From contig JAKAWU010000012.1 of assembly GCA_021816965.1 (NCBI GenBank), positions 1-32,183 of the forward strand: 32,183 nt of DNA. The letters are read 5' to 3'. Each line of letters opens with the position of its first letter. Position 1 is the first letter of the stretch. The notes beneath the pieces were generated by a model that was not told where the DNA came from, searched no databases, and was given only the letters and a program-made list of their open reading frames with translations. Made by a program: the position numbers and the translations under genes. The DNA is from Thermoplasmata archaeon. Its GTDB lineage: Archaea; Thermoplasmatota; Thermoplasmata; Thermoplasmatales; Thermoplasmataceae. Shown here one piece after another: positions 4,528 through 32,183 of this stretch.

Positions 4528-5806
4528 AATAATGCTTATTGGCGGAGGAGGCAGAGAAGATGCAATTGCTAGAAAAATTATCGAGAATGAGGGGACTCTT
4601 ATAAGTATACTCCCCTTTGAGAATCCTTCCATTATAAGGATGAGTGAAAAATACTTCATAGCGGGTGAGAATGATGCAGATAAGATCATATCTCTTGCAA
4701 AGGCTGAAAATCCTGATGTAGTGTATGTCAGTCCAGATTCATTTCTTGATAAGCCTATAGTGGACGCTCTGCAGTACAGTAAGATCAGGGTTGCTTCCCC
4801 TGATACCAAGGCATTCCAGATTGAAAGCTCAAAAATATTCATGAGGCAACTGATAAAAAGATTCGGAATATCCGGGAATATCAAATATGACATATTCTAT
4901 GATGAATACGATGTTGAAAAGTTTCTTGGAAGCACAGACAAGCATTTTGCCATAAAGCCTGCGGGCCTTACAGGTGGAAAAGGGGTGAAACTCACCGATG
5001 TGCATTTTTCCTCAAGAGAGGAGGCAAAAAGGTATGCTGCATCTGTTGTAGCCAGGGATAAGAAGGTAATTCTTGAGGAGAGGATCACTGGTGAGGAATT
5101 TTCAATTCAGGCATTCACTGACGGAAGATCATGCTCCTTTTTCCCTGTAGCGCAGGATTACAAGAGACTTTATGATGATGAAACAGGCCCCAATACAGGC
5201 GGAATGGGATCAATAACGGGCAGGGACATGGGTCTCCCATTCATCAGGAAAGACAGCGTGGAGAAGGCAAAAGACATTGTGAAGAAAGTGTTGAGCAGCC
5301 TTTATTCAGAAGGCACCATGTTTAGGGGAGTCATTTATGGTCAGTTCATGCAGACAAAATCCGAAGTGAAAATAATAGAATTCAACGGAAGAATGGCTGA
5401 TCCTGAAGGAATAAACTGCATGGCTCTTTTTGATGGAGATATAGTTGATACGTTGATTTCACTGGGTGATACAAATCTTCACACAGCATCGATTCACTTC
5501 AAAAACAGGGCATCAGTGCTCAAGTATGCTGTTTCCGAAGGATATCCTGATCATCCGGTACCCGGAACTCTCAGGATCAACAATTCCCACCTCCCTGAAC
5601 ACTTCAAGATATACTATGGCTCTGTGAAGGGCACGATGGAAGAGCCGCAGATGACAGGTTCAAGAGGTGTTGCACTTCTTGCAATGGCTGATAGCATTAA
5701 TGAGGCCTCAGAGATAGTAGAATCAAACCTCTGGAGAATTGAGGGGAAATATCACATGAGGCATGGCATTGGTTCAGCACCCAGCCTTCGTAAAAAGATT
5801 CAGTGA
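4517..5806 (+). CDS. purD: Phosphoribosylamine-glycine ligase (GAR synthetase)
   Basis: Second step of de novo purine synthesis: joins glycine to 5-phosphoribosylamine using ATP. The 429 residues match the family length. An N-terminal nucleotide-binding-like lobe begins MLIGGGGREDAIA. An ATP-grasp core follows, with KPAGLTGGKGV, EERITGEEFS, and the PurD signature NTGGMGS. The usual metal-binding motif N-x-R-x-GDPE appears as FNGRMADPE, with A in place of G. A strong Shine-Dalgarno (GGAAGGAG, 4503-4510) lies 6 nt before the ATG, inside the 3' end of scpB, supporting this start. It ends 5 nt from the convergent minus-strand gene. Confidence 0.94.
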   Translation: MKAKIMLIGGGGREDAIARKIIENEGTLISILPFENPSIIRMSEKYFIAGENDADKIISLAKAENPDVVYVSPDSFLDKPIVDALQYSKIRVASPDTKAFQIESSKIFMRQLIKRFGISGNIKYDIFYDEYDVEKFLGSTDKHFAIKPAGLTGGKGVKLTDVHFSSREEAKRYAASVVARDKKVILEERITGEEFSIQAFTDGRSCSFFPVAQDYKRLYDDETGPNTGGMGSITGRDMGLPFIRKDSVEKAKDIVKKVLSSLYSEGTMFRGVIYGQFMQTKSEVKIIEFNGRMADPEGINCMALFDGDIVDTLISLGDTNLHTASIHFKNRASVLKYAVSEGYPDHPVPGTLRINNSHLPEHFKIYYGSVKGTMEEPQMTGSRGVALLAMADSINEASEIVESNLWRIEGKYHMRHGIGSAPSLRKKIQ

Positions 5807-5811
5807 TATTT

Positions 5812-6711
5812 TCACAACTTTATTTTCCCTATTATTCTGGGTTTTGAATTAGGCCTTATTAGAAGGTATTCTTTCTCCTGTAGTATGGGCCTGTCCATCA
5901 CCACCTCATTTCCTTTAAGGAATCCGCGCTGATACCTCATGTGGCCTGCAAGGAATACCTCGCCATCCGTTCTCATGGCTTCAGGGACTGCCCTATGGTA
6001 TATCACGTCACCCATGATTGATTCCACGGGTTTCCTCTTCTCTTCCTCCAGGATGCTTCCTCTCTCCAGTTCATCAACATCGACATTTTTCAAAGCGAGT
6101 CCAACCCTTGAGCCAGCAGGAGCCTCATCAACATCAATATCATTCATCTGTATGGATCTTATCTGCACGGTCTTTCCTGAAGGATTCAGGTACAGAGACT
6201 GATGTTTTGCTGCCTTCCCGGAGAGCACGAATCCCAGTGCCACGGTTCCAACACTTTTCACCATGAAGAAGTGATCTATCAAAATGGATGTCTTCCCTCC
6301 AGTTTCCCATGAATGATTCCATGGAAATGTTAGAAGCTCCATCGGTTTTCCATTGAATCTCTGATATTTTTCCATGACACTACCCTTCAGTATCCTTTCA
6401 AGCAGAGATGGTTCTATGTTGCTTCCTGGGATTATGTATCCGTTCTCCTTATTCATGAGATCAGATGCAATTATGATCTCTCCAAGAGACCTGTCTATAT
6501 TGTTCACGCCTATGAGAGAACTCTGGGAAAGAAACAATGCATCCGTGAGGGATTGTATCTTGTCAGGGAACTTGTCAGGAGAGAATATTGTCACTATGTC
6601 ATCACCATCTTTCCTTCCATAGATTGTTATATCACTTTCCGTATGCTTCTTTGCAATTTCCTTGACATAATCATTTGCATCGTATGAGAAATATATCTTA
6701 TTTACTGTCAT
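5812..6711 (-). CDS. EF-Tu/SelB domain-2-like protein lacking the GTPase domain
   Basis: 299 residues. Residues about 145-235 read like the beta-barrel domain 2 of translational GTPases: FMVKSVGTVALGFVLSGK, IRSIQMND, APAGSRVGLALKNVDVDELERGSIL. The rest fits a following barrel (FLAGHMRYQ, RGFLKGNEV). The first 140 residues carry no P-loop (GxxxxGKS), no DxxG and no NKxD, so it cannot bind GTP as a normal EF. Similar degenerate EF-1A/SelB relatives occur in archaea, but I know of no established function. A GGAGGTG site (6716-6722) lies 4 nt before the ATG, and the gene overlaps hemH by 14 nt, so it is translated as part of the asnS-hemE-hemH operon. Confidence 0.75.
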   Translation of the reverse strand: MTVNKIYFSYDANDYVKEIAKKHTESDITIYGRKDGDDIVTIFSPDKFPDKIQSLTDALFLSQSSLIGVNNIDRSLGEIIIASDLMNKENGYIIPGSNIEPSLLERILKGSVMEKYQRFNGKPMELLTFPWNHSWETGGKTSILIDHFFMVKSVGTVALGFVLSGKAAKHQSLYLNPSGKTVQIRSIQMNDIDVDEAPAGSRVGLALKNVDVDELERGSILEEEKRKPVESIMGDVIYHRAVPEAMRTDGEVFLAGHMRYQRGFLKGNEVVMDRPILQEKEYLLIRPNSKPRIIGKIKL

Positions 6712-28227: not shown

Positions 28228-28253
28228 CGCAGAGAAATATTATTTCTTCTGCG
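28228..28253. repeat. Inverted repeat at the MMPL stop codon
   Basis: CGCAGAGAAATA (28228-28239) faces TATTTCTTCTGCG (28241-28253), a 12-bp stem with one bulged base and a one-base spacer. It straddles the end of the membrane-protein gene and adjoins the T-tract, so it may act as a terminator or 3'-end stabiliser for either convergent gene. Confidence 0.4.
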
Positions 28254-31200
28254 TGCTTTTTCCGAACTTTGCGGGCCACCAGTTAGATTTTCCGAGAACC
28301 TTCATGAATGCAGGTATGAAGAACTGCCAGCTGAGGAAAGTGTCAAGCAGAACCCCAAGAGCTATTCCCACTCCTAACTGCTGCATCAAGGGTATTGAAC
28401 TGAAGTAAAGAGCAGCAAAGGTTACGAAAAGTGTTGTTCCAAGCAGCATGACCACGGCACCATTCTCTTTTACGCTTGTGATTATGCTGGTGTCAATATC
28501 GTTCCCTTTGATTATCTCTTCCCTCACTCTCGTGATCATGAAAACATCATAATCTACACCCACAGCAAGAAGTGTTGTAAACACAAATACCGGCATGAAT
28601 ATGATCACTGGATAACCCTGGATATAATGGAATATTCCATAACCTATAGAAAGGGCCACAACGACTGTTCCAATTACCATAAGTATCAGCCTTGTTGGAG
28701 AAATTACTGAACTTAGCTGTATAGCAAGAAGTGCGAAAATAGTTATGGAAAGAATAGGAACCAGTTCAAGGAATGCTGACTGTGTTGATGAGTATGCATT
28801 TGAAAGAGATTCTGTCAGTCCACCTATGGCTATTGTATAATTTTCATTTCCTGATGCCTGAATATTGCTGTTAAGGACGTTTACTGTGGAGATAGCCTTG
28901 TTTTCCCATCCAAGTATGTAAGTCTGGAATACAATCTCGACATATCTCGAATTAGTAGAGCTTATGAATGAGTTGGACTGATTCTCATACAATATTGCCT
29001 GTGATGCAGGAACGGATGATGGATTGTATCCTGTAAAATAACCAAATGGCCTTCCCGGACCGTATACTTCCGATATTCCCGAAGTTGAGAGAGTCTTGTT
29101 CTCTATACTGTTTACGGTGGACATTTCAGTCTGATTTACTTTCCCATTGACAATAAGTGGAGCTGCGAGGCCCACGACAATAAATCCTCTGTCGAGGAAA
29201 TCGCCATTAAATGAATTATTTATCTGGTCAATAGCAGTTATTGCCTGGCTCTGAGGTAACAATTTCAGTATGTTGATACTCTCAGGGGTTGCCTGGTAAA
29301 TATACACCCCGATGATTATTATAACGAAGAACACTGCAATCATGGCATATCTGTTTTCTGTTGTGAATCTTCCAACCTTTTGCATTCTAAGATGCTCCGA
29401 TTCTACGGTTCTACCTTCAGCAGATTTCCTGAATATGCTTTTTCCATACCTGTGAAGTATAGAAGGAAGGAATGTTGTCGCAAGCATTAGCGATACAAAT
29501 ACCCCTATTGCATTTGCGAAACCAGAGTCACTGAAAAAAGGTATGTTGATAAGCCAGAGGACAACCTGAGAAAGGATAACTGTCAAACCAGAGGTGAATA
29601 CCGCATGTCCTGCCCATCTCGAAGTGATAATGGTGGGATGCTCGGTCTTGTGAATCAGTTCCCTCCTGTACCTTGCCATGATATATACTGTATAGTCACT
29701 GGTCAATCCTAGTATGAATATGAAAAGGAGTGTGGGAGTGATGAAAGATATCTGCGAATGGAATATATAAGTATAAATTAATCCAATTATTCCAAGAGAT
29801 ATTACTGCAGAAATCATGAAAAGCAATATTGGTATAAAGGCTGCCTTGATGGATTTGAAAAATAATCCTATAACCAGTATGGATAGCATTACTCCTATGG
29901 CAAGCGCCTTTACCAAACCGGATGATATTTCACTTGAAAGTTGGGATGCAAATTGTTCAGTTCCTGCGATCAGGAATGTTGAACCATGTATTTGCGCAGA
30001 AAAGTTTCCTGAGGATGAAGTGACAATATTTGCCTGCTGAGCCGTATAATTTCCATTGAATGTGAATACAAATAACACAGTTTTGTTATTGAATCCAACG
30101 AAATTGTGCATAAGGTATGGTGTTGGATATATAGGTAGCCCATAAATGGAATGGTGTGTCATATATGACTGTACAGTCAAACCAGTACTGGAATTTGCAA
30201 GTATATTGAAATACGAAGAAAGAGCATTTTTGTTAATTTCAAAAAATGGATTGCCATCAAACTTTATTATTGCGGCTCTCGAAGTAAAGAGAGAGGAGAG
30301 ATAATCAATAGTGTTATTTGATAATGCGAGTGAACCGTGTGTTGTATTAAAAACCTGTGAAGTGAATCCAAACAAAGTGAAATTGTCCACTGATTCTATC
30401 AGATACATTAAAGAAGATGTGTTTGAACCTGTTGGCAGAATATAGAATGGGAAGAACAGTGATGAAAGGTTCAGGGTGGATTGTGTGCTGTTTGATATGA
30501 ACGCAGAAAGATTCTGATTTCCTATCACAAATATGGATGAGGCATTGAGTGGCCCGAGTGCAGAGAGATATGGGACAAAAGAGCTGTTCTTCAGTGTGCC
30601 CTGAGAACTTGTTTGAATATCACCCAAGGGGTTATTAATAATTGAATTGCCTGATATATTGACGTTATGTGAAAATGCATCAAGATATTGTATCTGTATG
30701 GATTCATACGGAGTTGAAACACTTTGAATAAATGAAAGTGCGCTATTATATGAAACGTTCAAATTATGACTTTTGATGAAAGCATTTAGATATACTTCCT
30801 CAACAATCAAAAATAATGAAGATGAAACATTTGTCTGGTACACAATACCATTATCTACCTGAACAGCTCCAGCATTCCCCTGTAGAAGTGTTTTCATTCC
30901 TGATGAAAAAGCATTCATTGAAGTGGATTCGGTGGATATAATACTTTGTACGCCTGTAAACCCAGGAGTCTCATTTAGGGATTTGCTAAGAGATTGTTCA
31001 TATTTAACAAGAGTACTAAAATCACTGGTGTTGTTGACGTATGTGTTCTGTGTGACGATTAAAATCTGTGTTCCGTTAGAACTTCCATTAGGATCTGACG
31101 GGAAATATTGGGAAAGTTGATTCTGTGCAACCTGTGCTTCACTGGTTCCACCTCCAAACGAAGATTGTATATTGAAATTTGTATTGGAAAATACCAGGGT

Positions 31201-31305
31201 GGCACCATAAGACATTAAAAGAATGAGAATTAACCATATAATTATGATTTTGCCACTATTTTTTGATACCTTTCTTCCTATCTTTTCAAAAGTGCTTTCA
31301 AACAT
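28240..31305 (-). CDS. MMPL/RND-superfamily membrane protein
   Basis: 1021 residues with RND topology: one N-terminal helix (KIIIIWLILILLMSYGATLVF), an external loop of about 400 residues, five clustered helices, then the same plan repeated. Each half keeps the family's paired acidic/aromatic site, GLTSDYTVYIMARYRRE and GVDYDVFMITRVREE, expected to carry protons. Relatives export lipids or drugs (MmpL) or hopanoids (HpnN). The first external loop has more than 15 N-x-S/T sequons, suggesting glycosylation. Substrate unknown. It is a monocistronic gene with its own AT-rich upstream region (ACAAATAT about 25 nt before the ATG) and no adaptor protein. Confidence 0.85.
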   Translation of the reverse strand: MFESTFEKIGRKVSKNSGKIIIIWLILILLMSYGATLVFSNTNFNIQSSFGGGTSEAQVAQNQLSQYFPSDPNGSSNGTQILIVTQNTYVNNTSDFSTLVKYEQSLSKSLNETPGFTGVQSIISTESTSMNAFSSGMKTLLQGNAGAVQVDNGIVYQTNVSSSLFLIVEEVYLNAFIKSHNLNVSYNSALSFIQSVSTPYESIQIQYLDAFSHNVNISGNSIINNPLGDIQTSSQGTLKNSSFVPYLSALGPLNASSIFVIGNQNLSAFISNSTQSTLNLSSLFFPFYILPTGSNTSSLMYLIESVDNFTLFGFTSQVFNTTHGSLALSNNTIDYLSSLFTSRAAIIKFDGNPFFEINKNALSSYFNILANSSTGLTVQSYMTHHSIYGLPIYPTPYLMHNFVGFNNKTVLFVFTFNGNYTAQQANIVTSSSGNFSAQIHGSTFLIAGTEQFASQLSSEISSGLVKALAIGVMLSILVIGLFFKSIKAAFIPILLFMISAVISLGIIGLIYTYIFHSQISFITPTLLFIFILGLTSDYTVYIMARYRRELIHKTEHPTIITSRWAGHAVFTSGLTVILSQVVLWLINIPFFSDSGFANAIGVFVSLMLATTFLPSILHRYGKSIFRKSAEGRTVESEHLRMQKVGRFTTENRYAMIAVFFVIIIIGVYIYQATPESINILKLLPQSQAITAIDQINNSFNGDFLDRGFIVVGLAAPLIVNGKVNQTEMSTVNSIENKTLSTSGISEVYGPGRPFGYFTGYNPSSVPASQAILYENQSNSFISSTNSRYVEIVFQTYILGWENKAISTVNVLNSNIQASGNENYTIAIGGLTESLSNAYSSTQSAFLELVPILSITIFALLAIQLSSVISPTRLILMVIGTVVVALSIGYGIFHYIQGYPVIIFMPVFVFTTLLAVGVDYDVFMITRVREEIIKGNDIDTSIITSVKENGAVVMLLGTTLFVTFAALYFSSIPLMQQLGVGIALGVLLDTFLSWQFFIPAFMKVLGKSNWWPAKFGKSTQKK

Positions 31306-31445: not shown

Positions 31446-31965
31446 ATGGATCTAGAATATTTCATGACTGAGGATTATGACTTATACAGAGATTATGAAA
31501 ATTTGATGCTTCAGTTGCCAGAGGATTCCATCACAACCTATGGGGCCATAGCAAAGGCCCTCGGTGACATCAAGGTTGCAAAGGCAGTGGGATTCATGCT
31601 GTCAAGAAACACTGATGGAGATAAAATAAAGTGCTACAAGGTAATTCATTCTGATGGTAGAGTTGGAAAATTCACCCATCCCCTTGGTAGTGAAGAGAGA
31701 ATACGAAGACTTGAAAAAGATGGTGCCATCATAAAAAATGGTTCAGTCTCGAACTTTAAGGAAAAGTGTTATGATGCTTTCAGAACTGATTACCCGCTAA
31801 AACATCTTTCTGATCTTCAGACACAACTTTTCCAAGATTTCTCTGAGAAGTTAAACAGTGATTTATATGATCTGTCTGAATACAATGAAATAGGTGCTGT
31901 GGATGTTTCATATTATAATCAGAAAGGTTACGGAGTTTTTGTCTACACTTCAGGTGAAAAGATAT
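31446..31965 (+). pseudogene. O6-alkylguanine-DNA alkyltransferase-endonuclease V fusion, interrupted
   Basis: Residues 1-100 form an AGT/ATL domain: TTYGAIAKAL, KAVGFMLSRN (Lys where the family usually has the DNA-flipping Arg), and IKCYKVIHSDG, with the acceptor cysteine C63 in CYK rather than the usual PCHR. Residues from about 115 start an endonuclease V domain: LQTQLFQDF, then GAVDVSYY with the first catalytic aspartate D153. F. acidarmanus encodes a functional AGT-EndoV fusion. Here EndoV sequence stops near residue 173, where the right end of an IS605-type element begins. The frame stays open to the window end, but only by reading antisense through tnpB. The AGT half could still be made; the nuclease half is lost unless the element excises. 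Confidence 0.75.
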
Positions 31966-32183
31966 GTGACATCCTCCCCCAGCTAACGCAGGGGCTTCCC
32001 GTTTCAAAGACCGAAGTTGCCATTGGCAGAGCTCCAATCTCCACGGGCGTGAATTTGGGAGTGCCCCTCCCTACAGCGATCAATCCAGCATTCCGGATGT
32101 TCATTGCGGCATTCAGGTCCCGATCAATGGTCAGGCCGCATGGGTTGCATTGGTATATGCGGTCTGACAGTTTCAGATCCTTC
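31943..32183 (-). CDS. tnpB: TnpB (IS605-type OrfB) C-terminus, partial
   Basis: The frame enters from beyond the window end, and its last 79 residues are visible. RIYQCNPCG provides the second CxxC of the TnpB zinc ribbon, and LTIDRDLNAAMNIRNAG carries the RuvC-III aspartate, both diagnostic of TnpB RNA-guided nickase/nuclease proteins. The tail ends VFETGSPCVSWGRMSHIFSPEV. The last residues appear to be encoded outside the element, by antisense EndoV sequence, with the stop at 31943-31945. The GC content is clearly higher than in the neighbouring genes. The N-terminus and any tnpA are out of view. Confidence 0.82.
   Translation of the reverse strand, partial: KDLKLSDRIYQCNPCGLTIDRDLNAAMNIRNAGLIAVGRGTPKFTPVEIGALPMATSVFETGSPCVSWGRMSHIFSPEV
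31966..32183 (-). mobile_element. IS200/IS605-family element, right end
   Basis: The right end reads, on the minus strand, GAAGCCCC...GGGGAGGATGTCAC, the style of right end I associate with archaeal IS605/IS1341-type elements. It includes a subterminal hairpin and no inverted terminal repeats. I place the boundary after TGTCAC (31966-31971 on plus), where recognisable EndoV coding ends. The exact base could differ by a few. The rest of the element lies beyond the window. Confidence 0.7.
31977..31994. repeat. Right-end hairpin of the IS605-type element
   Basis: CCCC (31977-31980) pairs with GGGG (31991-31994). An A-A mismatch is followed by GC/GC pairing around a TAAC loop. Bulged subterminal hairpins of this kind are recognised by TnpA and also end the scaffold of the TnpB guide RNA. 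Confidence 0.55.

What the first reader, a model, noticed from the sequence alone, without database searches (positions are those of the whole stretch)
31446..32183. TnpB element inserted into the AGT-EndoV DNA-repair gene
The plus-strand gene reads as AGT then EndoV up to about residue 173. At 31966 the DNA becomes a GC-richer IS605-type right end whose minus strand encodes the TnpB zinc ribbon and RuvC-III motif. EndoV loses everything after its first catalytic aspartate, so inosine/deaminated-base repair through this protein is probably lost. Automated annotation could miss it, because the broken frame stays open through the element and yields a chimeric protein.
Basis: partly seen in the sequence, partly recalled or inferred. 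Interest (0 to 1): 0.75.

Follow-up and report, generated by a model that had tools for sequence, protein, structure and literature searches.

The report
Transposon replaces half a repair gene
In this uncultured Thermoplasmata archaeon an ordinary IS200/IS605 transposon sits where the second half of a fused DNA-repair gene (alkyltransferase plus endonuclease V) used to be, so the endonuclease V half is gone; this is a routine mobile-element event in a gene that most assembled members of the genus do not carry.

Summary
The plus-strand gene is AGT-EndoV up to residue 173. At 31965/31966 an IS200/IS605 right end begins, with tnpB reading inward on the minus strand. The junction is sharp: other copies in this genome and in G008 end at the same ...GGATGTCAC, and intact orthologues (87, 73 and 60% identical) continue with normal EndoV.

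The interpretation needs one change. The window is the end of its contig (C23). The other side of the locus is the end of contig C43, which carries the same element's left end followed by hemA, the gene downstream of AGT-EndoV in three relatives. That left end lies within a few bases of the orthologous EndoV stop codon. So EndoV residues 174-313 (about 420 bp) are missing, not pushed beyond the element; neither tblastn nor the Endonuclease_5 profile finds them in the assembly.

The element targets TTTAA: all five full left ends are preceded by it, and an empty site in G008 confirms it for one copy. How the 420 bp were lost is unresolved: element-adjacent deletion, earlier deletion, or two insertions. 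EndoV activity through this protein is almost certainly lost; the AGT domain with its cysteine remains. Eight of eleven congeners also lack a detectable EndoV. Ordinary.

The parts
31446..31965 (+). Remaining 5' part of the AGT-EndoV gene (residues 1-173 plus one base of codon 174); complete AGT DNA-binding/alkyltransferase domain and the first ~30 residues of EndoV
   Evidence: PF01035 match; 87% identical over residues 1-172 to the intact 313-aa orthologue of G008, which carries both PF01035 and PF04493
31632..31634 (+). Codon of the candidate alkyl-acceptor Cys63 (motif KCYK in place of the common PCHR)
   Evidence: Position read from the translation; aligned in the AGT/ATL matches; the acceptor role is family knowledge
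31902..31904 (+). Codon of EndoV Asp153 (GAVDVSY), the first catalytic Asp; the only catalytic residue left
   Evidence: The orthologue aligns here with solved EndoV structures such as 2w35; the downstream FRE and DGNGxLHPR motifs of G008 are absent here
31966..32183 (-). Right end of an IS200/IS605 element (outer end at 31966), including the subterminal stem-loop and the 3' part of tnpB; the contig stops inside the element
   Evidence: Same end in other copies of own and G008 genomes; 99% identical over 152 bp to the end of contig C7; 98% to two G008 contig ends; predicted stem-loop
31943..32182 (-). C-terminal 79 codons of the TnpB frame (CxxC of the zinc ribbon at 32138-32149, RuvC-III DRD at 32117-32125); a 1-nt shorter C run removes the usual stop, so the frame runs out into the flank
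   Evidence: PF07282; comparison with intact TnpB of contig C16 (413 aa; PF01385, PF07282, PF12323) and with G008 right ends
28240..31305 (-). Upstream neighbour, MMPL-family membrane protein; same neighbour in G008 and G004, and a similar-sized gene in the same place in G001
   Evidence: PF03176; gene order

Best explanation
An IS200/IS605 element (HUH transposase TnpA plus TnpB), present in this genome in at least two near-identical copies, occupies the 3' half of the AGT-EndoV gene. Its right end abuts codon 174 and its left end lies at the former EndoV stop codon, next to a TTTAA target motif; EndoV residues 174-313 are gone. Most likely the element inserted at TTTAA at the stop codon and the DNA beside its right end was then lost, though the order of events is not shown. 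The remaining frame can make the AGT domain plus a dead EndoV stub and an antisense tail. Shown: both junctions, the synteny, and the absence of EndoV from the assembly. Inferred: that contigs C23 and C43 are the two sides of one element, the order of events, and loss of nuclease activity.
For: Sharp right end shared by many copies. C43 ends in the left end of the same element type, and its flank is the EndoV-hemA spacer plus hemA, the gene that follows AGT-EndoV in G008, G004 and G001. No EndoV C-terminus by tblastn and no PF04493 match in the own genome, while three relatives are positive. All five full left ends are preceded by TTTAA, and the G008 empty site for the C13 copy reads ...TTTAA|GAACTC... 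without duplication. TTTAA is the TAM of Sulfolobus islandicus TnpA/TnpB elements (PMC10640517).
Against: No contig spans the element, so the C23-element-C43 connection rests on synteny and matching ends. A small EndoV fragment between two copies of the element could have been dropped from the assembly (85.5% complete, 77 contigs). Reads were not available, so a mixed population is not excluded.
Confidence: 0.75

Rival explanations
1. Two copies inserted in the same orientation, one at codon 174 and one at the stop codon. The ~420-bp EndoV 3' part either lies between them, unassembled, or was removed by recombination between the copies.
For: Each boundary would then be an ordinary element end with no unexplained deletion. 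A hypothetical site ATA TTT AAA at codons 173-175 would be in frame and carry the TTTAA target on the minus strand. Fragments flanked by repeats often drop out of short-read assemblies.
Against: The closest orthologue has ATA ATG ACA there, 3 of 6 differences where about 0.7 is expected at 88% identity. It needs two insertions in one gene. No EndoV fragment was found.
Confidence: 0.2
2. The EndoV 3' part was deleted first, for example by slippage between short repeats, and the element later inserted at the TTTAA beside the scar.
For: CAGGTGAA occurs 7 nt before the right end in the window and also at the stop codon of the G008 orthologue.
Against: A shared word of 8 nt or more with that end region occurs for about 5% of random 40-nt pieces of the gene, so it is weak. 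The deletion scar would have to fall next to the target motif.
Confidence: 0.2
3. Assembly artefact: the EndoV-element junction joins unrelated reads.
For: Contig C23 ends inside a repeated element, where joins are least certain, and the genome is a draft of 77 contigs.
Against: The junction falls exactly on the element end seen in other copies, and the other side of the same locus independently ends in the same element's left end beside its target motif.
Confidence: 0.06

Closest known systems
AGT-EndoV fusion protein of Ferroplasma acidarmanus (Kanugula et al. 2005, cited in PMC10779285)
   Same: Alkyltransferase and EndoV fused in one protein; the intact orthologues here have both Pfam domains, AGT first
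   Different: The window copy has lost EndoV after its first catalytic Asp. The Ferroplasma protein itself was not aligned here
IS200/IS605 family elements with TnpA and TnpB, e.g. those of Sulfolobus islandicus with TAM TTTAA (PMC10640517)
   Same: Y1 transposase and TnpB genes in complete copies, TTTAA at the left end, no target duplication at the one empty site available
   Different: At this locus host DNA is missing beside the right end, which a simple insertion does not cause

Membership tests
IS200/IS605 element | Y1 (HUH) transposase gene in the element | tested here: met
   PF01797 E=2e-37 in the complete C16 copy; for the window copy only by relationship, as its transposase gene is not assembled in the window
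IS200/IS605 element | TnpB with RuvC and zinc-ribbon domains | tested here: met
   PF07282 in the window; PF01385, PF07282 and PF12323 in the C16 copy
IS200/IS605 element | Insertion 3' of a short fixed motif, without target duplication | tested here: met
   TTTAA before all five full left ends; empty site of the C13 copy in G008
IS200/IS605 element | Subterminal hairpins at both ends | tested here: inconclusive
   Stem-loops predicted at both ends, but not stronger than shuffled sequence (z -1.1 and -0.35)
AGT-EndoV fusion protein | AGT DNA-binding/alkyltransferase domain with acceptor Cys | tested here: met
   PF01035; Cys63 in KCYK; activity not testable
AGT-EndoV fusion protein | Complete EndoV domain with its catalytic residues | tested here: not met
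   Ends after residue 173; PF04493 is not found in the own genome but is found in G008, G004 and G001

The most novel reading that the evidence does not exclude
The deletion that starts exactly at the right end was made by the element itself, by TnpA using a second site in EndoV or by TnpB cutting next to its own insertion, so that IS605 elements can carve adjacent deletions with one end fixed.
Probability: 0.12. Interest if true: 0.4.

Novelty: new member of a known kind. Interest (0 to 1): 0.2.

Why it matters
It documents natural loss of the EndoV half of a bifunctional repair protein while the AGT half stays in frame, in a genus where EndoV is often absent. No other EndoV, no TIGR00375 protein (from memory the family that includes EndoQ) and no second AGT is found in the draft genome, so it is a small natural test of whether deaminated-adenine repair by EndoV is dispensable in these archaea. 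It also shows how contigs that end inside repeats can make a deletion look like a simple insertion.

Tried and rejected
An early argument that the target motif (then read as TTTAAC) would place a stop codon in an intact EndoV was dropped when the G008 empty site showed the motif to be TTTAA (the notebook checkpoint still carries the old argument). Deletion by the 8-nt repeat CAGGTGAA was tested and is weak (about 5% by chance). Pairing C23 with C74 was rejected because C74 and C7 flank one locus in G004 and G001. The 2005 Ferroplasma paper is not held. A search of named genomes returned only G008's own record (Thermoplasmata archaeon YS4.bin59) and one weak, more distant match. Hairpin folding gave no significant z-score. 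Papers on adjacent deletions by IS200/IS605 were searched for by title and abstract only and none was read.

Full report
Observation. The frame from 31446 stays open to the end of the window. Its first part matches the AGT DNA-binding domain (PF01035) and the minus strand of the last 240 bases matches the TnpB/Cas12f zinc-ribbon domain (PF07282). The window is the whole of contig C23 of a 1.36-Mb, 77-contig, 85.5%-complete draft genome, so the contig ends inside the element.

Junction. Orthologues exist in three members of the same genus: G008 (87% identical over residues 1-172), G004 (73%) and G001 (60%), all with uninterrupted EndoV after the point where the window diverges. G008's protein has both PF01035 and PF04493 and its C-terminal part aligns with solved EndoV structures. 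Between own and G008 the first 519 nt are 88% identical with dN/dS about 0.16-0.20, so the retained part shows no sign of decay, although this mostly reflects the time before the event. The element's right end reads ...GGATGTCAC and is followed by a different flank in each copy examined, which fixes the boundary at 31965/31966.

The element. Complete relatives on contigs C16 and C13 are 1753 and 1759 bp and carry a 140-aa Y1 transposase and a TnpB of 413-415 aa. All five full left ends begin CATA(A/T)GCGAG and are preceded by TTTAA. G008 has the empty site of the C13 copy...CTTTCTTTAA|GAACTCATG..., with no duplication. TTTAA is also the TAM reported for TnpA/TnpB elements of Sulfolobus islandicus (PMC10640517). 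The window's copy and the copy at the end of C7 share a 1-nt shorter C run compared with two G008 copies, which removes the usual tnpB stop. The antisense EndoV frame stays open here for the 73 codons visible, whereas in C16 and C13 it closes after 23 codons.

The other side of the locus. Left ends of the same element subtype stop contigs C43 and C74. On C43 the flank is the spacer and start of hemA (glutamyl-tRNA reductase). In G008 and G004 the gene after AGT-EndoV is this same 422-aa hemA, and G001 has a 422-aa gene in the same place. Aligned with G008 and G004, the left end of the element lies within a few bases of the EndoV stop codon. C7 and C74, the other two contig ends of this element, have flanks that are neighbours in G004 and G001, so the pairing C23-C43 is the consistent one. 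EndoV codons 174-313 therefore have no place in the assembled locus, and neither tblastn with the G008 C-terminus nor the Endonuclease_5 profile finds them elsewhere in the draft genome.

Mechanism. An IS605 insertion does not by itself remove host DNA (family knowledge). The left end has the expected TTTAA, with near-matches (TCAAA, TTAAT on the plus strand, against TTAAA) at the homologous place in G008 and G004, so the stop-codon site is the better candidate for the original insertion; the 420 bp beside the right end were then lost. Two rivals remain open: an earlier deletion next to the site, with weak microhomology support, or two insertions with the piece between them lost or unassembled. 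Reads would decide.

Consequence. The EndoV motifs after the first Asp are gone, so inosine cleavage by this protein is almost certainly lost (inference from family knowledge). The AGT domain with Cys63 remains and could still act, or act as an alkyltransferase-like binder. The draft genome shows no second AGT, no other EndoV and no TIGR00375 protein. Eight of eleven other genus members also lack a detectable EndoV, including a single-contig genome rated 99% complete, so absence of EndoV is common here.

Verdict. A real, correctly spotted junction; an ordinary transposon-associated gene loss, misread only in that the rest of EndoV is missing rather than displaced.

Noticed in passing
L018:2350-2396 (contig C54) and L086 around 1295-1341 (G008 contig C108): A 47-bp mini-element made of the left tip fused to the right tip of the same element at a shared CGGGAA, next to TTTAA; it sits at the same place in both genomes, so it predates their split.
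   Followed up: partly
L097 (contig C7), about 5580-6152: Beside the second copy's right end lies a ~570-bp stretch without a counterpart in G004 that matches a tnpB-bearing region of contig C10, suggesting a nested insertion next to an older element remnant.
   Followed up: partly
L099 and L100 (G008 contigs C70 and C14, first 127 bp): G008 also has two contigs that start inside the same element (98% identical) but with other flanks, so the element is active or recently active in the genus.
   Followed up: no
31632-31634: The alkyl-acceptor motif is KCYK rather than PCHR in the window, G008 and G004 (KCFK in G001); more distant relatives have PCYK, PCYR or PCHR.
   Followed up: no
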